Positions 54,966 to 62,512 of a stretch of 64,000 nucleotides of DNA are shown here, in pieces. The stretch spans positions 2,418,001 through 2,482,000 of the forward strand of contig NZ_AP031572.1 in assembly GCF_040436315.1 (NCBI RefSeq), given 5' to 3'. The DNA comes from Synechocystis sp. LKSZ1. GTDB lineage: Bacteria > Cyanobacteriota > Cyanobacteriia > Cyanobacteriales > Microcystaceae. Every line of letters starts with the position of its first letter. The stretch's first letter is position 1. Position numbers and translations under genes: made by a program. Under the pieces are notes generated by a model that was given only the letters and a program-made list of their open reading frames with translations, was not told where the DNA came from and made no database searches.

Positions 54966-55520
54966 ATGACAACCAACTCCCAAACGGCGAAGACCTACAT
55001 CAATGTGATGGAGGCTTTGGTACAACAAGAAATCGAGAAACAACTGAAGTTTTATCCCCAGAATCTAAGATCATACCTTAATACTGTTGAAGTAGCCACC
55101 TACGCCCTTAATCGCCTGCCGCCCCTCTATGCCTCCAGCACCACAGGACAACGGCAACAGGAATACCAAGGGGGTAAAAAATACAAAGAAGAAATTACCT
55201 CCGCCGTTCGTCGTGCCATTGCCGCCGTTGAGCGAGACCCGCTCCGGAGTTGCACCCCCATTGTTTCAGAAATGGAACTCCAGTATGAAGAAGCGGCTCA
55301 GGTTCTCCATGGCATTCAGGCCCTTTTGAGTGAACGGGGCCTGTTAGACTATCCCGGTCAGACCTTGAATTGGGAAAATTGCCTACGGGTTCTTAAAAAA
55401 GCCTTTGACCGAGCTACGGGTAAGGCAACAACGCCACCACCTTCTTTTACGCGTAACGTACCACCGCCACCACCAGCTCCCAATCCCCGTCGTACTAACT
55501 CGAATGCAACCCTGTGGTAG
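54966..55520 (+). CDS. ComFB-domain protein
   Basis: The 184-residue protein has a ComFB domain: TYINVMEALVQQEIEKQLKF, NTVEVATYALNRLPPLYASS and a following helical region with EEITSAVRRAIAAVERDP. The domain was named from a Bacillus competence gene; recent work describes ComFB proteins as cyclic di-nucleotide receptors. A C-terminal Pro/Arg/Asn tail (residues 158-184) looks disordered. It probably acts in second-messenger signalling, for example motility or competence, but this is inference. It overlaps the convergent Rieske oxygenase gene by 26 bp. Confidence 0.87.
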   Translation: MTTNSQTAKTYINVMEALVQQEIEKQLKFYPQNLRSYLNTVEVATYALNRLPPLYASSTTGQRQQEYQGGKKYKEEITSAVRRAIAAVERDPLRSCTPIVSEMELQYEEAAQVLHGIQALLSERGLLDYPGQTLNWENCLRVLKKAFDRATGKATTPPPSFTRNVPPPPPAPNPRRTNSNATLW

Positions 55521-56607
55521 CGCCTTGGGCCTGTTGACGGATTAGTTTTTGCACAGCGGCCAGGGCCGGGTTAACTTCGTAGCTCCGTTGCTCAGGATGA
55601 CGGAGATAGGCCTGTTGTTCTTGCTCGATCATCATCACGTCCTGCTCCACCAGGCCCTCTAGCAGTCTGCGGGCGGAACCGAAGAGCCGGTTTTTTAAAA
55701 ATTGCCGAAAGGCGACGGGCAGTTTATGGAGGTTAGGAAAGGCCTGGAGAGAGGTGAAATGAACCAAGTAGGCGCGGGTGTGGGTCTCACTGACGGGGCA
55801 AAAAAGACAGTAAATCTTGAAGTCTTCCCCCAGACTAGAGGCCCAGTGGGGGTAATGGTAGCTGACGGTTAAGGGCTCAGGATGGAGACGACGCAGGGCC
55901 GGAAAAAAGAGCTGGGAAATCGACCAGATTTTATCAATTCTGTAGTAGCTCTGGGCTTCGTAGTAGGCATGGACGCAGTCCGGAGTCGCTTCGATACGCT
56001 GGAGGGAGGCGGAGGCCCAGGCCTGGTAGTTATCGTGGAGATGGCCATGGTACATATCCATCAGATTTTCGATTAGGAAGGAAAAATGGCCCTGGCAGTC
56101 AATGGTGGTAAAACTAGCAATATAGTTCAAATGCTTCCATTCCGGTAGGCCCATGGGTTCAATAGCCTGCTGAGCAAGTTGCTCAGGATCACCGGGATAA
56201 AGCCAGATAAAGCCATCCAGTTCGCGGACGGGATAGGTTCGCAAACGACACTGGGGGCGTTTCTGTCGTTCTGTTAAATACGGAATTTCTACACAGTGGC
56301 CTGTACCATCAAACTGCCAGCCATGGTAAGCACATTCTAGATGATTCCCTACCACCTTGCCTTCACTCAATTTGACCTGCCGGTGGGGACAGCGGTCTTC
56401 GATGGCCTGAATTTGGCCCTGGGCATCCCGAAACAGTACAATTGGTTGGTGCCAGAGGGTGACACTGAGGGGCCGTTGGTGGACTTCGCCACTCTGGGCC
56501 ACAACGTACCAATGCTCGAGATGAATGGGGCAGACACGCAGGGGGATCTTGCTGGAACGAGTTGTCGAAACCACGGACATAGGCAGGGGGGGAACAGGAA
56601 ATGCCAT
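55495..56607 (-). CDS. Rieske non-haem iron oxygenase
   Basis: The 370-residue protein has a Rieske centre, EDRCPHRQVKLSEG then LECAYHGWQFDG (CxH and CxxH), at about residues 70-95. A mononuclear-iron site follows: IENLMDMYHGHLHDN near residue 185, with one Asp and two His. A helical C-terminal domain ends it. It belongs with the cyanobacterial and plastid group around pheophorbide a oxygenase and Tic55; the substrate cannot be stated. No C-terminal membrane helices or CxxC motif, typical of the plant enzymes, are seen. Starts at 56607 or 56580 are both possible. Confidence 0.88.
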   Translation of the reverse strand: MAFPVPPLPMSVVSTTRSSKIPLRVCPIHLEHWYVVAQSGEVHQRPLSVTLWHQPIVLFRDAQGQIQAIEDRCPHRQVKLSEGKVVGNHLECAYHGWQFDGTGHCVEIPYLTERQKRPQCRLRTYPVRELDGFIWLYPGDPEQLAQQAIEPMGLPEWKHLNYIASFTTIDCQGHFSFLIENLMDMYHGHLHDNYQAWASASLQRIEATPDCVHAYYEAQSYYRIDKIWSISQLFFPALRRLHPEPLTVSYHYPHWASSLGEDFKIYCLFCPVSETHTRAYLVHFTSLQAFPNLHKLPVAFRQFLKNRLFGSARRLLEGLVEQDVMMIEQEQQAYLRHPEQRSYEVNPALAAVQKLIRQQAQGATTGLHSS

Positions 56608-56902
56608 CTAGACTAGCATTAGCAGATACGAAAGCCATCGTCTAAGTTCCCACATCAGCCCTGCGAGGGCCAGCAGTCTGGATCTTGGCCAAGAGAAAAT
56701 GACTAAGATTATCCATCGCTAACCGTAGGGTTAAAGCCAGAGGGTTTTATGGCTTCCCAAAACTGCCACGCTCTATAATCAGACCGGACTGTTGCGTCGA
56801 GCGCCATTCCCATCCAATACCATCTAACTAGTCCAATATTAGGATAAGTATCCCCATAGCCCCATCCATTCTGCCAGTCTTCTCTTCTTTGGTCATTACT
56901 CT

Positions 56903-58126
56903 GTGAAATCCGCTTCTCCTCGGTTCCAGCCTCAACTGAATTTAGTCATTACCTGGGCCGGAGGGGCTACAGAAGAGAGTCCCTTGGGCCAGCTTCGTCA
57001 GCAAACTATGGCCCTCCTGCGTTGGCTGATCCCTGGACTAGAGGGCTGGTTCTGGGAATTTCCAGTGGCCCAAGTATTGAAACTCCATTGCTACAGCGCT
57101 CCCCTCAGCAAATCTTTTCTTTGCTTTTGTCAGGAAATGATTGAAGGCTACCAAGCCGATTTCCAGCAGGGCCAGGCCTACTTTGCTCACTTCGACCCCC
57201 CGGAGATTCTCGGTTTCTCCGCTGACCAGGACACCTATTCTTTACCATTTCTCTTCCTTCCCTGTCTTTACCAGGGCCAGTACCTGGGGGGAATGTGTCT
57301 GGGTCATCCCGGCCCTCCCATGTGGCATCAACAGCAACTCCAGCCCCTTCAAATCATTGTCGAACAGTACAGCCTTGGCTATACCCTAGCTCAATCCTCC
57401 CCAGCGGCCTCTCTGGGGACGATGGCCTTAGACCTCTCCCATCTACACCACGAACTCCGGACACCGCTGACGGGAATCTTGGGGTTTTCTAAAATGCTTA
57501 AGGAAGAACTGTACGGGCCGCTCAACGATAAGCAACGACAGTACGTTCAAGGCATTCTACTCTCGGGGGAGCATCTCCTTTCCCTCGTCAACGATTTTCT
57601 AGACCTAGCTAAAATTGATGCTCGGCGGGAAGAACTCTTTTTAGAAGTGGTGGCGGTGGAAGACCTCTGCTGGGCGGCCCTATCTATGGTACAAATTAAT
57701 GCCAGGGAAAAGGGCCTAGACCTTAAACTTGAGATAGCCCCGGAGGTGGATTTTTGTCGAGTGGATCAGAAGCGGGTTAAGCAAATTCTACTCAATCTGC
57801 TGTCCAACGCCATTAAATTTACTCTGGAGGGAGGCGTAACGCTCCGGGTTGAGCGACAAGGGGAGTTCTTAACCTTGGCGGTGATCGATACCGGCATTGG
57901 CATTGAAGCAGCAGACCAAGCCCAGTTATTTCAACCGTTTAAGCAACTCAAGCATCCCCTCAACCGCCAGACCAAAGGAACAGGTCTGGGCCTGGTACTA
58001 TCCCGCAAGTTGGCCCAGTTGCACGGTGGCGATATTTACCTAGAATCCTGCCCAGGCCAGGGGAGTTGCTTTACTCTCCAGCTTCCCCTAGAAAATTTAG
58101 GCTCAGCAGATGAGTCTGAGGCCTAA
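56903..58126 (+). CDS. sensor histidine kinase with GAF-like sensor
   Basis: The 407-residue soluble protein has a GAF-like N-terminal domain (about 20-170, with FLFLPCLYQGQYLGGMCLGH). HisKA follows with DLSHLHHELRTPLTGILGFS near residue 185. The ATPase domain shows RVKQILLNLLSNAIKFT, VIDTGIGIEAADQAQLFQPF, GTGLGLVLSRKL and GQGSCFTLQLP. All catalytic boxes are intact. No ligand can be named. The start is GTG at 56903 with no obvious ribosome binding site. It lies 53 bp upstream of the NDH-2 operon on the same strand and may regulate it or be part of it. Confidence 0.9.
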   Translation: MKSASPRFQPQLNLVITWAGGATEESPLGQLRQQTMALLRWLIPGLEGWFWEFPVAQVLKLHCYSAPLSKSFLCFCQEMIEGYQADFQQGQAYFAHFDPPEILGFSADQDTYSLPFLFLPCLYQGQYLGGMCLGHPGPPMWHQQQLQPLQIIVEQYSLGYTLAQSSPAASLGTMALDLSHLHHELRTPLTGILGFSKMLKEELYGPLNDKQRQYVQGILLSGEHLLSLVNDFLDLAKIDARREELFLEVVAVEDLCWAALSMVQINAREKGLDLKLEIAPEVDFCRVDQKRVKQILLNLLSNAIKFTLEGGVTLRVERQGEFLTLAVIDTGIGIEAADQAQLFQPFKQLKHPLNRQTKGTGLGLVLSRKLAQLHGGDIYLESCPGQGSCFTLQLPLENLGSADESEA

Positions 58127-58179
58127 TCCTTGGCTATCATAGGCGGTGTCTCCTGCCACGGGTTTAACCTCCAGGGCCT

Positions 58180-59637
58180 ATGTCAAACGCGTCTCAGTCC
58201 ACGGTTATTGTGGGGGCCGGTTTTGCCGGTTTATTTACGGCCCTGCACCTGCGCCATCGCCAATACGGAGAGCCCATTTTCCTGATGGATCCCCAGGAAC
58301 GGTTTGTCTTTAAGCCCATGCTCTACGAACTGTTGACGGGGGAATTACCGGAATCTGTTGTCTGTCCCCAATACGAAACCCTGCTCGAACATAGTCGCAT
58401 CACCTTTGTTCAAGACCGGGTAACGGGCATTGATTTACAACAGCGGCAATTAGAATTGGCCAGCGGCCAACGCCAGGCCTTTAACCATCTGGTACTCACC
58501 GTCGGAGCTAGTCAAGGCTATTTAGGAACTCAAGGGGCCGAAGCCACCGCCTTTGCCTTCCGCTCACGGGAGCAGGCCCTGGCCCTGCGGCAACATCTCC
58601 AGGATTTACTTCGCCAGGCCCAGCAAACGACCGACCGAGAACACCGCCGTCAGCTTTTGACCGTGGCCATCGTGGGGGCCGGCCCTGCCGGGGTTGAAAT
58701 GGCGGCCACCCTTGCAGATTTATTGCCCAGTTGGTACGCCAAGATGGGGGGGGATATCCGTGATATTCGCCTTTGTTTGATCAACCATGCCGACTCCATT
58801 TTGGCCGGGGATGCCAATGCTCGCCTGAAAAAAGAGGCCCTGGCGGCCCTGCACCAGCGCATGATTCCGGTCGAACTTTTGCTAGGCATCGGAGTCAAGG
58901 CGGTTTATGGTGATCATCTGGAGTACCAAAAAAAGGGCGAGACCGATATTCAATCCCTGCCGGCCCACACCACCATCTGGACAGCGGGAACGGCCGTGAA
59001 TCCGCTGATAAAGGAGATTGCGACCCAGCTCAGACCCGAAAATCTCGACCGCCACGGCCAACCCTTGGTGACAGAAACCCTGCAATTACCAGATTTTGAT
59101 TATGTCTTTGCCGCTGGGGACTGCGTTACCGTCCAGGGCCAACCCCAACCGGCTCTGGCCCAGATTGCCTACCAGCAGGGCGCGGTAATTGCCCATAATA
59201 TCCAGGCCCTCAGCCAAGGCCGGCCCCTCAAACCGGCTCAACCCACCCTACGGGGTACTTTGATGAAACTGGGCCTGGGCAACGGTGTGGCTAATCTCTT
59301 CGACAAAGTCCAAATTCACGGCAAGGTGGGCGACCTACTCCGCAATGCCACCTATCTAGAACTTCTGCCTACTCCTCTGCATAATTTCAAGGCAACGACC
59401 CAATGGCTAGAAGAAGAAACCATCCATCGTTACCATCGGCCCCAGGCCCTGTCTCCCCAAGCAGTCGCAGAACTGCGGCTCTCCGCAGCCGACCGCCGGG
59501 CCCTGGGCTGGGTCAAAACTTTGGCCGTTGCGGCTCCTATCGTCTTTCTCGTGGCGGTGTTTCTGGGCCTACAAACGCCTAGCAATGAACGTCAGCCCTT
59601 TCGTCCCCTGCCTACCCCTGTTGCACCGACACGCTAG
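58180..59637 (+). CDS. type II NAD(P)H:quinone oxidoreductase (NDH-2)
   Basis: The 485-residue flavoprotein has an FAD-binding motif VIVGAGFAGLFTALHLRHR at the N-terminus and a second dinucleotide fold VAIVGAGPAGVEMAATLADL near residue 163. DYVFAAGDCVTVQGQPQPAL, the FAD-contacting AAGDC box, lies near residue 307. A C-terminal hydrophobic segment (about 450-470) may anchor it to the membrane. It would pass electrons from NAD(P)H to plastoquinone without pumping protons. It is the first gene of a four-gene unit with only 3 bp to the next start. Assignment as NdbA, B or C is not attempted. Confidence 0.93.
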   Translation: MSNASQSTVIVGAGFAGLFTALHLRHRQYGEPIFLMDPQERFVFKPMLYELLTGELPESVVCPQYETLLEHSRITFVQDRVTGIDLQQRQLELASGQRQAFNHLVLTVGASQGYLGTQGAEATAFAFRSREQALALRQHLQDLLRQAQQTTDREHRRQLLTVAIVGAGPAGVEMAATLADLLPSWYAKMGGDIRDIRLCLINHADSILAGDANARLKKEALAALHQRMIPVELLLGIGVKAVYGDHLEYQKKGETDIQSLPAHTTIWTAGTAVNPLIKEIATQLRPENLDRHGQPLVTETLQLPDFDYVFAAGDCVTVQGQPQPALAQIAYQQGAVIAHNIQALSQGRPLKPAQPTLRGTLMKLGLGNGVANLFDKVQIHGKVGDLLRNATYLELLPTPLHNFKATTQWLEEETIHRYHRPQALSPQAVAELRLSAADRRALGWVKTLAVAAPIVFLVAVFLGLQTPSNERQPFRPLPTPVAPTR

Positions 59638-59640
59638 CCC

Positions 59641-60129
59641 ATGTTTAGCTTAAATAACCAAAATCTGCCCTATCCCGACACTCTGCATCCGATTATTGTC
59701 CATTTTGTGATTGCCATGGTTTTTTTCGCCTATTTTTGCGATTTAACCGGCTATCTCACCCGCCGGCCCCATTGGTTTGAAGTGAGTTGGTGGAATCTGG
59801 TGGTGGCCTCCATTGCTATTTTTTTTGCTGTCATCTTTGGGGAATTTGAGGCGGCCCTGGCCCTGCCCTACCCAGCGGCCCAACCGGCCCTGGATTGGCA
59901 TACGGTCAATGGTTGGTCTCTATCGGCTCTACTAGTGGGCTTAACGGCCTGGCGGGGCGTCTTGCGAGTACGCAATCCCCTCAAGCTTTCGGTGCTTTAC
60001 CTGGGAGCGGCGACGGTGCTGATGTGCCTCATTTGTCTACAGATTTACCTCGGCTCCCTGGTGGATTGGGTCTTTGGACTCCATAGTGTACCGGTGGTGG
60101 AGGCCACCAAGGCAGGAAAATTGCAATGA
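59641..60129 (+). CDS. DUF2231 membrane protein 1
   Basis: The 162-residue protein has four hydrophobic helices. Conserved histidines sit in the first (LHPIIVHFVIAMVFFAYFCD) and before the third (DWHTVNGWSLSALLVGLTAW); another lies near the end (GLHSVPV). This is the DUF2231 pattern. Paired histidines on helices suggest possible haem binding, which is inference. Its start is 3 bp after the NDH-2 stop and its stop overlaps the next start (ATGA), so translation is tightly coupled. Confidence 0.85.
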   Translation: MFSLNNQNLPYPDTLHPIIVHFVIAMVFFAYFCDLTGYLTRRPHWFEVSWWNLVVASIAIFFAVIFGEFEAALALPYPAAQPALDWHTVNGWSLSALLVGLTAWRGVLRVRNPLKLSVLYLGAATVLMCLICLQIYLGSLVDWVFGLHSVPVVEATKAGKLQ

Positions 60130-60740
60130 ATCCCTCCTTGATTGACCAACTGCAACAACTGGCCCTGGAACTGGGCACCAATGGCCTGCCCTACCGTTTT
60201 CCCCTCCATCCCAACCTCGTTCATTTGACCTTAGGCCTGTTTATTATTGCGCTGATTTTTGATTTTGCCGGCACCTTCTTTTTTCTAGAACGCCCCATTC
60301 TTAAGGCTTTTGCTATCCCTGTTAGCCGCCAGAGTTTCTTTGATGTTGGTTGGTATAATGCCGTCGCTGGGTCCTTGGTGACGTTTTTCACCGTCGCGGC
60401 GGGCTTTTTTGAAATCCTCCTGGCCCAAGCCCCCAGCAACCAGACCAGTGATTGGGGCTTAGGGGCCGGTAGTACGATGCTCCTCCATGGCGTTGGTGGT
60501 GTCCTCCTCCTAGCGATGATGGTGGCCATGACCCTTTGGCGGGGCTATCTCCGCTATGCTTGGCGCAAGGACAACCCCCAGCAGGTAGATGGTTGGTATT
60601 TAATGGCCGGCCTATTCCTAATGGCCTATATGGCCCTGCACGGCACCCTGGGGGCCCAATTGGGGGCCGAGTTTGGTGTGCATAATACCGCGGCGCATCT
60701 CCTGCGGATGGGCCAAAATCCCAATCAAGTTCTCCAGTAG
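60126..60740 (+). CDS. DUF2231 membrane protein 2
   Basis: The 204-residue protein is a paralogue of the preceding one, with the same HPNLVH in helix one (LHPNLVHLTLGLFIIALIFD). A second histidine is in LHGVGGVLLLAMMVAMTLWR, matching the TAWRG segment of its neighbour, and further histidines are in ALHGTLGAQL and HNTAAH. Four helices are predicted, plus a longer N-terminus and C-terminus. A tandem duplication next to an oxidase gene is striking. Function is unknown. Confidence 0.85.
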   Translation: MNPSLIDQLQQLALELGTNGLPYRFPLHPNLVHLTLGLFIIALIFDFAGTFFFLERPILKAFAIPVSRQSFFDVGWYNAVAGSLVTFFTVAAGFFEILLAQAPSNQTSDWGLGAGSTMLLHGVGGVLLLAMMVAMTLWRGYLRYAWRKDNPQQVDGWYLMAGLFLMAYMALHGTLGAQLGAEFGVHNTAAHLLRMGQNPNQVLQ

Positions 60741-60749
60741 GTGAAGTGC

Positions 60750-61712
60750 ATGCAGGCATTTAATTGGCTTCTGTTGACCGTCTATACCTTGATGAGTCTG
60801 GCTTTGAGTCATTGGTTGGGCCAACAGGCCTATGGTTGGCTCCCTCCAGCGGCGGCCCTGGAAGCGGAACCCATTGGTGATCTATTGAGCTTTATGACCC
60901 GCCTGGCCACCCTGATTTTTATGGGGGTCATGGGGGCCTTGTTATATTCTTTGCTGTTCTATCGGGCCCGGCCGGGACAGGAAGAGGGGGCACCGATTCG
61001 AGGCAATACCCAACTGGAAATTATTTGGACGGTGATCCCCATTTTGTTAGTCACCTGGATTGCCCTTTATAGCTATCAGATCTACCAACGCATGAATGTG
61101 CTTGGCCCCCTACCGATTGTCGAAGTGCCGAATCCCCTGGATGCTCCCGCCCTGGCCCAAGGAGAAGCATCCCCTAGTTCTATAACAGTTCCAGAAAATA
61201 TTGAAGTCCGCGTCAAACAATGGGCCTGGGCCTTTACCTATCCCCGTGCTGGTGTGACCAGTGCCGAACTGCATCTCCCCGTCAATCGCCCGATTCATTT
61301 TCAAATGACCTCAGAAGATGTGATCCACGGTTTTTACATTCCCAATTTTCGGCTGAAACAGGACATTGTCCCTAACCGCACTATTGAGCTGAGCGTGACA
61401 CCAAGTCGAGAGGGCCAATACCAACTGCGGGATTCCCAATATAGCGGCACCTATTTTGCGGTCATGACCGCTCCCGTTTTCGTTGAATCCCCGGCGGCCT
61501 ACGAACAATGGCTCCAGGCCCAGGTTACATCTAAGCCAAGCCCTAACCCGGCTCATCAGGAACATCAAAATCCACCGCCAACGCGCCTCAAGAGTGGTTG
61601 GCCCACGGTGAAACCGGTAGAATCCTTCGACCCTGCGCTAGAAAAACCTCAACTAGAGGCTAAGGCATTAGTCATGGCAATAATCCAGGGTACAGGAGTT
61701 GAACCTGTCTAG
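60750..61712 (+). CDS. ctaC2: haem-copper oxidase subunit II, alternative (ARTO/quinol-oxidase type)
   Basis: The 320-residue protein has two N-terminal membrane helices and a periplasmic or lumenal cupredoxin domain with the family motif DVIHGFYIPNFRLKQDIVPN. The CuA loop, normally CxExCxxxHxxM, here reads DSQYSGTYFAVM (61431-61466). Both cysteines, the Glu and the second His are lost, while the first His and the Met remain. It therefore cannot hold a normal CuA centre and cannot take electrons from cytochrome c. This matches CtaCII of the cyanobacterial alternative respiratory terminal oxidase, thought to oxidise quinol. Subunits I and III are not in the window. A GTG at 60741 is also possible. 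Its 3' end lies inside a tRNA gene. Confidence 0.88.
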   Translation: MQAFNWLLLTVYTLMSLALSHWLGQQAYGWLPPAAALEAEPIGDLLSFMTRLATLIFMGVMGALLYSLLFYRARPGQEEGAPIRGNTQLEIIWTVIPILLVTWIALYSYQIYQRMNVLGPLPIVEVPNPLDAPALAQGEASPSSITVPENIEVRVKQWAWAFTYPRAGVTSAELHLPVNRPIHFQMTSEDVIHGFYIPNFRLKQDIVPNRTIELSVTPSREGQYQLRDSQYSGTYFAVMTAPVFVESPAAYEQWLQAQVTSKPSPNPAHQEHQNPPPTRLKSGWPTVKPVESFDPALEKPQLEAKALVMAIIQGTGVEPV

Positions 61713-61756
61713 GGCGAATTATGAGTTCGCTGCCTCAACCGCTCGGCCAACCCTGG
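61684..61756 (-). tRNA. tRNA with CAU anticodon, probably tRNA-Ile(CAU)
   Basis: The minus strand folds into a complete 73-nt cloverleaf. The acceptor stem is CCAGGGT with ACCCTGG and discriminator A; the D stem is GCC/GGC. The anticodon stem GCGAA/TTCGC encloses loop CTCATAA, and the T stem ACAGG/CCTGT encloses TTCAACT. Anticodon CAU can mean elongator or initiator Met, or Ile (lysidine-modified). The paired first position excludes a typical initiator, and the D-arm resembles plastid trnI-CAU, so Ile is favoured. The 3' CCA is not encoded. It overlaps the 3' end of the oxidase subunit II gene by 29 bp on the opposite strand. Confidence 0.9.
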
Positions 61757-61773
61757 GGAGTTTTTGCTCCCTA

Positions 61774-62054
61774 TTATAGGCTAGAATCGGCGTCTTCCCC
61801 AGTACCCAGGTGATATTTGCTTTGCACCAACCCATTCGTAAACACAGTGGTTTCAATATGAATAAGAGCCAGGGCCTGATCCAGTGCTCCAAATAGGGGA
61901 ATCCCTTTCCCCAGGAGAATTGGCATCCGAGTAATGATCAGTGTTTGAAGAAGGCCCTCGCGGAGGAAGCTCTGGATAGTCTGGCCCCCATCAATGTAGA
62001 GATGCTGACAAAACCATCCACACTGGTCGCAATATAGGCTGTTGTTTTAATCAT
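61774..62054 (-). pseudogene. DHFR-like (RibD C-terminal domain) pseudogene with internal deletion
   Basis: From ATG 62052-62054 the frame reads MIKTTAYIATSVDGFVSI, the classic N-terminus of the DHFR/RibD_C family. It then jumps, in another reading frame, directly to the family C-terminus LYIDGGQTIQSFLREGLLQT, MPILLGKGIPLFGALDQALA and KYHLGTGEDADSSL, ending at a TAA (61774-61776). About 90 central residues of a normal ~180-residue protein are missing, with the join near 62000. Sequence on both sides is still well preserved, so the deletion seems recent. Members are reductases of folate/riboflavin-like substrates, often of unknown role. Confidence 0.83.
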
Positions 62055-62224
62055 CTTGTCTCTGGAATGTCAATTATTCTTGATACGCTTCCCATGGCCA
62101 GGATTAGAAATCGTTAAGATAGAATACTAACTACTTGCTCCCACCTTCTTCTCCTGCTGACGTTGTCTGCTATTGATGCATCTCAATCTCAGACCGTATT
62201 TCTGCCCTATTTCGCCATCATTTT

Positions 62225-62512
62225 ATGATAGAAGCTACAGCAAGTCCCTCCGCGAGTTCCTCAGAAGAATCCCTACTATCGGGGGAAGAACGGGTCACCC
62301 AAATTCGGCATCTAATCGAAACCCTGCGTGTTGCCGATGAGGTTGCAAGTAAAGGCTATCTGATTACCAGTTCAGAATTAGCAGATTTAATGGATATTAA
62401 TGCCAGTGCGGTCACGAGTCGGGGCGACCATTGGTCTTGGCGCAATTGGGTGGTTTCCCGAGTCCGGCGGGAGGGCAATCAAATCCTTTGGCAATTAGAG
62501 CGTGTTGATTAG
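62225..62512 (+). CDS. small HTH-like conserved cyanobacterial protein
   Basis: The 95-residue protein has a Ser/Glu-rich head, then helix ERVTQIRHLIETLRVADEV. A helix-turn-helix-like stretch LITSSELADLMDINASAVTS follows, with a basic strand WSWRNWVVSRVRREGNQILW resembling the wing of a winged helix. It may bind DNA or act as an adaptor. It is 9 bp upstream of the MlaF-type ATPase gene, so they are probably cotranscribed and functionally linked. No named family is recognised. Confidence 0.75.
   Translation: MIEATASPSASSSEESLLSGEERVTQIRHLIETLRVADEVASKGYLITSSELADLMDINASAVTSRGDHWSWRNWVVSRVRREGNQILWQLERVD

What the first reader, a model, noticed from the sequence alone, without database searches (positions are those of the whole stretch)
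56903..61712. NDH-2 / two DUF2231 proteins / CuA-less oxidase subunit operon with a histidine kinase upstream
NDH-2, two paralogous DUF2231 membrane proteins and an ARTO-type subunit II are arranged with 3-bp, -4-bp and under-10-bp junctions, indicating one translationally coupled unit. NDH-2 reduces quinone and a CuA-less oxidase should oxidise quinol, so the unit could form a short NAD(P)H-to-oxygen module. The DUF2231 proteins could be haem or assembly partners. The kinase upstream could sense redox state. The linkage of NDH-2 and DUF2231 proteins to ARTO is, to my knowledge, little described.
Basis: partly seen in the sequence, partly recalled or inferred. Interest (0 to 1): 0.62.

Follow-up and report, generated by a model that had tools for sequence, protein, structure and literature searches.

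The report
DUF2231 pair tied to quinol-type oxidase
Two unstudied membrane proteins accompany a poorly understood cyanobacterial oxygen-reducing enzyme in nearly every examined genome that has it, sometimes with an NAD(P)H dehydrogenase gene, and may be the missing part that feeds it electrons.

Summary
NDH-2, two DUF2231 proteins and a CuA-less oxidase subunit II (CtaC2) form one tight run at 58180-61712. The upstream histidine kinase is not conserved and drops out. Oxidase subunits I and III lie elsewhere in this genome (3.37 and 0.10 Mb).

The DUF2231 pair is the constant partner of this oxidase (ARTO): at the thresholds used, its second member is in 152 of 152 ARTO-positive genomes and 11 of 138 others. 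Of those 11, three pair it with another oxidase, two proved to have CtaC2 beside the pair, and six were not inspected. The Anabaena operon alr2729-alr2730-coxBAC3 is already in print, so that linkage is not new.

Apparently new: in four genomes the same pair sits behind a cbb3-like CcoN-CcoO, with NDH-2 following in three. NDH-2 of this type lies near the pair in several lineages, in five arrangements. Eight histidines are invariant in 94 of 94 pairs. CtaD2 lacks the bo3 quinol-site residues; CtaC2 lacks the CuA cysteines.

Best reading: the pair is an electron-input unit, probably haem- or quinol-binding, taking quinol electrons into oxidases without standard entry sites. Association is shown; cofactor and electron transfer are inferred.

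The parts
58180..59637 (+). NDH-2, NdbC-like type II NAD(P)H dehydrogenase: Rossmann FAD/NAD domain, AQIAYQ at residue 327 (the meaning of the AQxAxQ quinone motif is recalled), one C-terminal hydrophobic segment
   Evidence: the equivalent gene of Fischerella NIES-4106 plasmid2 is annotated ndbC
59641..60129 (+). DUF2231-a (Da), 162 aa, four predicted long helices; H16, H21, H87, H148 invariant
60126..60740 (+). DUF2231-b (Db), 204 aa, four predicted long helices; H28, H33, H121, H186 invariant; starts inside the stop of Da
60741..61712 (+). CtaC2, subunit II of the CuA-less oxidase ARTO; probable start ATG 60750; last codons run into an antisense tRNA
61684..61756 (-). tRNA-Met(cat), antisense to the 3' end of ctaC2: possible edge of the rearrangement that parted it from ctaD2 and ctaE2 (inferred)
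56903..58126 (+). Histidine kinase, upstream neighbour; judged NOT part of the module

Best explanation
The two DUF2231 proteins are dedicated membrane partners, probably subunits, of the CuA-less oxidase ARTO. They most likely serve as its electron-input unit: a pair of four-helix membrane proteins whose invariant histidines hold haem b (or another His-bound cofactor) near the outer face of the membrane, oxidise plastoquinol and pass electrons to haem a of subunit I. NDH-2 makes plastoquinol from NAD(P)H close by in those lineages that have it. The same pair serves a cbb3-like CcoN-CcoO oxidase in a few cyanobacteria. Shown: gene order, co-occurrence, two oxidase contexts, invariant histidines, loss of CuA ligands, absence of bo3-type quinol-site residues. 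Inferred: cofactor, quinol oxidation, physical complex, direction of electrons.
For: Co-occurrence: Db is in 152 of 152 ARTO-positive and 11 of 138 ARTO-negative genomes at the thresholds used. Two of the 11 (G298, G106) proved to carry CtaC2 right beside the pair and three carry CcoN-CcoO-Da-Db. Kept after linkage is lost: in three assemblies of the window's own genus (G065, G069, G082) CtaC2 is not next to Db, yet both remain (the G082 contig ends 0.6 kb after Db). The pair follows CcoN-CcoO at 0-171 bp in 4 of 9 CcoN-bearing genomes, with NDH-2 next in 3 of the 4. One genome (G211) has separate pairs with ARTO and with CcoNO (a third Db match was not inspected). Eight histidines are invariant in 94 of 94 pairs of both contexts, while Db H172 and Da C33 are not. 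Loops 1 and 3 carry more Lys/Arg than loops 0 and 2, which places these histidines toward the outer face. CtaC2 lacks both CuA Cys in 73 of 73 rows; none of R71, D75, H98, Q101 of the bo3 quinol site is kept in 66 of 66 CtaD2 rows. NDH-2 of this subtype occurs in 15 of 44 genomes, all 15 with Db, and lies near the pair or its ARTO in 11.
Against: No cofactor was tested. Foldseek gave no match at E<=0.001 for either model, and VIA-align matches are generic helical bundles: COX subunit III, designed bundles, chemoreceptor domains. No sequence relative in the PDB up to E 10. Absence of the bo3 site does not exclude another quinol site in CtaD2 or CtaC2; the literature classes ARTO as a bo3-type quinol oxidase (PMC6616624; PMC9313322). 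CcoO has its own haem c motif and could take electrons from a soluble carrier. Five CcoN-CcoO loci lack the pair. Lone pairs without a neighbouring oxidase exist (L068, L190), and one ARTO trio lacks a neighbouring pair (L133), though that genome has pairs elsewhere. Six Db-positive genomes without detected ARTO were not inspected. The NDH-2 subtype is absent from 17 of 32 pair-bearing genomes. Loop 4 of Da has as many Lys/Arg as loop 1, so the topology call is soft.
Confidence: 0.48

Rival explanations
1. The DUF2231 pair is an assembly factor for these oxidases (haem or copper insertion into subunit I) and not part of the working enzyme.
For: Near-obligate co-occurrence and operon position fit an assembly factor equally well; invariant histidines could hand over copper or haem; a gene annotated protoheme IX farnesyltransferase precedes the operon in Fischerella NIES-4106.
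Against: A-type and C-type oxidases generally use different assembly factors (recalled), yet the same kind of pair accompanies both. The aa3 oxidase of the same genome has no pair of its own: the only two DUF2231 genes of this genome are in the window.
Confidence: 0.25
2. The pair is a structural or regulatory accessory of the oxidase, four-helix units with no redox role, perhaps packing against subunit I like subunit III.
For: VIA-align places Da close to subunit III of many oxidases (Z 10.3 to 11.7), and Foldseek's first rows for Da are also mostly subunit III (E about 1).
Against: Subunit III is already encoded (CtaE2). Eight invariant histidines would be unusual for a purely structural role. 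Such Z values are within the background for helical bundles (note).
Confidence: 0.14
3. The module sends electrons to periplasmic ferric iron as well as oxygen: the DUF2231 pair is a cytochrome b561-like ferric reductase beside ARTO.
For: A Synechocystis ARTO mutant has less ferric reductase activity and iron uptake (Kranzler 2014 as cited in PMC7676907, passages); the invariant histidines face outward by charge.
Against: No test of the DUF2231 proteins; the deletion phenotype may be indirect; iron regulation of this cluster was not examined.
Confidence: 0.08
4. Ordinary operon packing: the neighbours share a promoter but no machinery.
For: The kinase upstream is indeed a chance neighbour; the NDH-2 subtype is missing from about half of the pair-bearing genomes.
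Against: Co-retention in 152 of 152 genomes, including genomes where linkage is broken, and a second oxidase context.
Confidence: 0.03

Closest known systems
Type-1 ARTO (Cox3/Qox) operon of Anabaena PCC 7120, alr2729-alr2730-coxB3-coxA3-coxC3
   Same: Two small membrane proteins ahead of subunits II, I and III; operon named in PMC6616624. Their DUF2231 identity is inferred from annotated homologues in Trichormus and Nostoc. alr2729-alr2732 fall together in PMC7065334, and PMC3898017 lists an NtcA-bound region at alr2729. All passages only
   Different: Window has NDH-2 in front, and subunits I and III elsewhere in the chromosome
Fischerella NIES-4106 plasmid2 cluster: farnesyltransferase-ndbC-two hypothetical proteins-subunit II-ctaDII-ctaEII
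   Same: Same order NDH-2, pair, CtaC2, with 62, 75, 72 and 55% identity to the window proteins
   Different: Complete; the window copy has lost subunits I and III from the cluster
cbb3-type oxidase of Synechococcus elongatus PCC 7942 (SYNPCC7942_RS01020/RS01025; PMC13208690, passages)
   Same: L126 and L145 show CcoN-CcoO-Da-Db-NDH-2; that these genomes are S. elongatus is inferred from length (recalled)
   Different: Subunit I is C-type (best solved relative 3mk7), with a mono-haem CcoO and no CcoP over cut-off
SoxABCD quinol oxidase of Sulfolobus (recalled)
   Same: CuA-less subunit II combined with an extra cytochrome b that handles quinol: what the pair would work like
   Different: SoxC is a bc1-type cytochrome b (recalled); no sequence comparison with it was made here
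bo3 ubiquinol oxidase CyoAB of E. coli
   Same: No CuA cysteines in subunit II
   Different: CtaD2 lacks all four bo3 quinol-site residues examined

Membership tests
ARTO (CuA-less A-type oxidase of cyanobacteria) | Subunit II without CuA ligands | tested here: met
   Both Cys replaced in 73 of 73 rows, second His is Phe in 73 of 73; first His and Met remain
ARTO (CuA-less A-type oxidase of cyanobacteria) | Cognate subunits I and III in the genome | tested here: met
   CtaD2 1023.9 bits at C1:3370514; second COX3 at C1:104188; neither is in the window
ARTO (CuA-less A-type oxidase of cyanobacteria) | Quinol oxidase activity | not testable with these tools
   no biochemical data
bo3-type ubiquinol oxidase | QH-site residues R71, D75, H98, Q101 in subunit I (roles recalled; letters checked in E. 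coli CyoB) | tested here: not met
   0 of 66 CtaD2 rows have any of the four; the aa3 subunit I of the same genome has Q101 only
DUF2231 (PF09990) | Profile match over the curated cut-off | tested here: met
   142 and 128.9 bits against 26.4; the only two in this genome
NDH-2 (NdbC type) | Two-dinucleotide-binding flavoprotein fold with AQxAxQ motif (motif recalled) | tested here: met
   Pyr_redox_2 114.2 bits; AQIAYQ at 327, and AQxAxQ in 25 of 25 linked-type rows, two of them repeats of the same contigs
NDH-2 (NdbC type) | Orthology to Synechocystis NdbC | tested here: inconclusive
   Only a record annotation (ndbC) and a distinct subtype by score
cbb3 oxidase (for the L126-type loci) | CcoN with CcoO and CcoP | tested here: inconclusive
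   CcoN 204 and CcoO 79 bits, both below NCBIfam cut-offs; no CcoP over cut-off in 6 of 6 genomes, weak cytochrome c matches only
Cytochrome b561-like / four-helix haem b proteins | Haem b bound by histidines of paired helices | not testable with these tools
   Invariant His present; no haem test, no coordinates available to measure
Cytochrome b561-like / four-helix haem b proteins | Fold match to a solved haem b membrane protein | tested here: inconclusive
   No Foldseek match at E<=0.001; VIA rows generic

The most novel reading that the evidence does not exclude
DUF2231 heterodimers are a previously unrecognised, swappable cytochrome-b-like quinol dehydrogenase that feeds heme-copper oxidases of two classes (CuA-less A-type and CcoP-less C-type). 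With a membrane-anchored NDH-2 they form a self-contained NAD(P)H:O2 oxidoreductase that works without cytochrome b6f, plastocyanin or soluble cytochrome c.
Probability: 0.3. Interest if true: 0.85.

Novelty: new variant of a known kind. Interest (0 to 1): 0.6.

Why it matters
How ARTO gets its electrons is not explained by the sites known from relatives: it has neither the CuA cysteines nor the bo3 quinol-site residues. ARTO matters for heterocyst respiration, plasma-membrane respiration and possibly iron reduction. A pair of proteins found in all 152 ARTO genomes detected, with eight invariant histidines and a second life beside a cbb3-like oxidase, is a concrete candidate for the missing input site, testable in Synechocystis, Anabaena and S. 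elongatus. It would also give a first function to PF09990 in this setting.

Tried and rejected
Histidine kinase as member: rejected. ARTO as a plain bo3-type quinol oxidase: the QH residues are absent. Solved relatives of the DUF2231 proteins by sequence: none up to E 10. Fold searches: Foldseek no significant match; VIA-align rows are generic bundles; a family not listed there is not excluded. No model coordinates were found in the Python box, so His-His distances could not be measured. DUF2231 outside cyanobacteria was not examined beyond the 14 control genomes (hits in three, one of them a cyanobacterium; one search failed). A recalled guess about the Synechocystis gene numbers of the pair was dropped after one search showed sll1486 to be listed as homologue of a transporter.

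Papers: ten searches. DUF2231 with cyanobacteria 0 papers; DUF2231 alone 1 paper (listing only); PF09990, DUF2231 or COG4244 2 papers (listing only); cbb3 with S. elongatus and terminal oxidase 5 papers, one read in passages; ctaCII, ctaDII, ndbC, operon 1 paper, read in passages (PCC 11901 has ARTO but no NdbC). No paper describing the pair with cbb3 genes turned up; most subscription papers are not held, and Schmetterer 2016 on cyanobacterial terminal oxidases was seen only as a reference. Against full co-regulation: alr2729 and alr2730 are listed lower in an Anabaena sigE mutant, while the text says coxB3 is not regulated by SigE (PMC4390870, passages).

Promoter and terminator scan of 56600-62300 gave numbers near those of shuffles (3 against 4.3; 11 against 7.8). 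Rfam gave only the tRNA. Rows dropped: one search left out hits under 75% coverage or without a stop; one search left out hits under 60 bits and unrelated gene classes; one search left out three loci that repeat contigs already used and kept 94 pairs; the tree used 55 of the 94. Structure alignments used 48 Da and 46 Db rows.
Full report
1. The observation. One search gives five + strand ORFs at the stated place; one search names them HisKA/HATPase, Pyr_redox_2, DUF2231, DUF2231 and COX2. The NDH-2 to Da gap is 3 bp, Da and Db overlap by 4 bp, and Db to CtaC2 is 0 or 9 bp depending on the start (Met4 aligns with Met in 62 of 73 rows). The kinase ends 53 bp before NDH-2.

2. What else the genome holds. 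G000 is one 3,671,396-base contig. It has two DUF2231 proteins, both here; two COX2, the aa3 one and this one; three COX1: the aa3 one, a lone CtaD2 at 3.37 Mb and a third, NorB-like by my reading, at 0.94 Mb; and two COX3, one with aa3 and one alone at 0.10 Mb. ARTO is therefore spread over three places. In a congener (G065) NDH-2-Da-Db, CtaC2 and CtaD2-CtaE are three separate places (L127, L128, L129). A tRNA-Met lies antisense to the end of ctaC2 here, possibly the edge of the rearrangement; that last step is inference.

3. Neighbourhood survey, first set. Of the 80 best Db loci in genome contigs (249 relatives, best 80 kept), Da directly precedes Db in 79; the exception, L043, starts about 170 bp before Db. 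CtaC2 follows in 75 of 80 and CtaD2 in 70 of 80. Some misses are contig ends, but L008 and L068 are true misses with full flanks, and L009 belongs to a genome (G082) with CtaC2 on another contig. An NDH-2 of at least 46% identity is in 7 of 80 (L009-L013, L025, L065); a 31% one in L030 was not counted. This set is biased to close relatives of Db.

4. Second set, unbiased by neighbourhood. Of 98 genomes drawn from the phylum, 29 have Db (E<=0.001), all among the 44 of the class; 0 of 54 others. In those 44, CtaC2 separates cleanly from other subunits II (at least 365 against at most 259 bits), as does CtaD2 (at least 934 against at most 817, one broken copy apart). 28 genomes have ARTO, and all 28 have Db; of 16 without ARTO one has it (G031). 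Db and CtaC2 are adjacent in 25 of 28; the other three are the window's congeners G065, G069 and G082 (the G082 contig ends 0.6 kb after Db). Enlarged to 290 genomes of the class, at least 90% complete: CtaC2 at E<=1e-95, a limit set inside that gap, in 152; Db at E<=1e-25 in 163; Db in 152 of 152 and in 11 of 138 (Fisher p about 6e-70, which ignores kinship). Of the 11, G031, G118 and G326 have the oxidase of point 5; G298 and G106 turned out to have CtaC2 beside the pair, under the limit or cut by a contig end; six (G108, G152, G180, G187, G202, G323) were not inspected.

5. A second oxidase. In G031 the pair follows a COX1-family gene and a mono-haem cytochrome c gene, and NDH-2 comes next. 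These two are cbb3-like CcoN and CcoO (204 and 79 bits, both under the NCBIfam cut-offs), and CcoN aligns with solved cbb3 subunit I (3mk7). 9 of 290 genomes have such a CcoN (E<=1e-30). In 4 of 9 (G031, G118, G326, G211) the order is CcoN-CcoO-Da-Db, with NDH-2 following in 3; the other 5, with 35-38% identical CcoN, have no DUF2231 there and are not among the 163 Db-positive genomes. No CcoP passes its cut-off in the 6 genomes tested. From genome length G118 looks like S. elongatus PCC 6301 (recalled); a paper lists cbb3 genes for PCC 7942 and calls their function in cyanobacteria unclear (PMC13208690, passages).

6. NDH-2. The subtype of the window (at least 48% identity and 307 bits; all other matches at most 184 bits) is in 15 of 44 genomes, all with Db, against 0 of the 12 without it. 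It is near the pair or its ARTO in 11 of the 15; G069, G090, G005 and G021 have it elsewhere. Positions differ: before Da (window, L009-L013, L127, L134, L188), divergent from Da (L131), after CtaE (L065, L177, L178; convergent in L025), after Db behind CcoNO (L126, L145, L146), and between Db and CtaC2 (L192). NDH-2 is not needed everywhere: 17 of 32 pair-bearing genomes lack the subtype, and PCC 11901 has ARTO without NdbC (PMC9313322, passages). AQxAxQ is present in 25 of 25 linked-type rows (two repeat the same contigs); 21 of 25 have a C-terminal hydrophobic segment, not L013, L182, L183 and L186.

7. Tree. On joined Da+Db (55 of 94 pairs), the CcoNO-linked pairs form one side of a branch (100/99). 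The ARTO pairs fall into the window's group (NDH-2 in 6 of 7), a second group (7 of 9) and the large classical group (1 of 35). NDH-2 linkage thus marks three of four deep groups and may be ancestral; the root is not inferred, L147 is a long branch and some of these rows are near-copies, so this is a suggestion.

8. Residues. H16, H21, H87, H148 of Da and H28, H33, H121, H186 of Db are invariant in 94 of 94 pairs, including the four CcoNO ones; Db H172 is Gln in 7, among them all four CcoNO ones. Models are four-helix (mean pLDDT 86.4 and 84.4). Loops 1 and 3 carry more Lys/Arg than loops 0 and 2 (loop 4 of Da is ambiguous), which puts the histidines toward the outer face. Against E. coli CyoB, CtaD2 has none of R71, D75, H98, Q101 in 66 of 66 rows, while the six haem and CuB histidines are kept; the aa3 subunit I of the same genome, as control, has only Q101. 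CtaC2 lacks both CuA Cys in 73 of 73.

9. Reading. The association of the pair with ARTO is shown. That it supplies the electron entry is the reading that uses most facts: two oxidases of different class, the lack of known entry sites, the invariant histidines, and a quinone reductase next door. No cofactor evidence exists, so assembly remains a serious rival.

10. Known or new. The Anabaena ARTO operon including the two genes is in print (PMC6616624); alr2729-alr2732 fall together in one expression study (PMC7065334), less so in another (PMC4390870); an NtcA-bound region is listed at alr2729 (PMC3898017). NdbB, NdbC and ARTO in the plasma membrane as a simple chain are in print (PMC6878006), though a thylakoid site is argued for PCC 7002 (PMC9313322). 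A role of ARTO in ferric reduction is reported (PMC7676907 citing Kranzler 2014). All were read in passages only. In the ten searches listed under Tried and rejected I found no paper on the function of the pair, on its link with CcoNO, or on the invariant histidines.

Noticed in passing
window 61684-61756 (-): tRNA-Met(cat) antisense to the last 29 nt of the ctaC2 ORF; possible breakpoint where ctaD2 and ctaE2 were lost from the cluster
   Followed up: partly
L126 5578-10657 (-), L145, L146, L147: cbb3-like CcoN-CcoO operons carrying the DUF2231 pair, with NDH-2 in three of four; the Db ORFs there are 304-311 aa against 204 in the window
   Followed up: partly
L068 7498-8606 and L190 5516-6627: Lone DUF2231 pairs without an oxidase, both near SDR-like and glyoxalase (VOC) genes; L133 has an ARTO trio without the pair among similar-looking neighbours
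   Followed up: partly
L134 8611-11864: Apparently decayed ARTO copy: shortened CtaC2 (105 aa) and CtaD2 (452 aa) behind NDH-2 and a DUF2231 pair
   Followed up: no
L148-L152: A second kind of cyanobacterial CcoN-CcoO locus without DUF2231; L149-L152 have an ORF of 80-82 aa next
   Followed up: no
L090 4050-6873 (C1 about 0.939-0.942 Mb): 776-aa COX1-family protein, NorB-like by my reading, followed by a 144-aa ORF that looks globin-like (recalled, not searched)
   Followed up: no
window 55495-55520: Convergent ComFB (+) and Rieske oxygenase (-) ORFs overlap by 26 bp
   Followed up: no
G108, G152, G180, G187: Db matches at the lower score level of the CcoNO group, with neither ARTO nor CcoN found; may reveal a further oxidase partner
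   Followed up: no
   Followed up: partly
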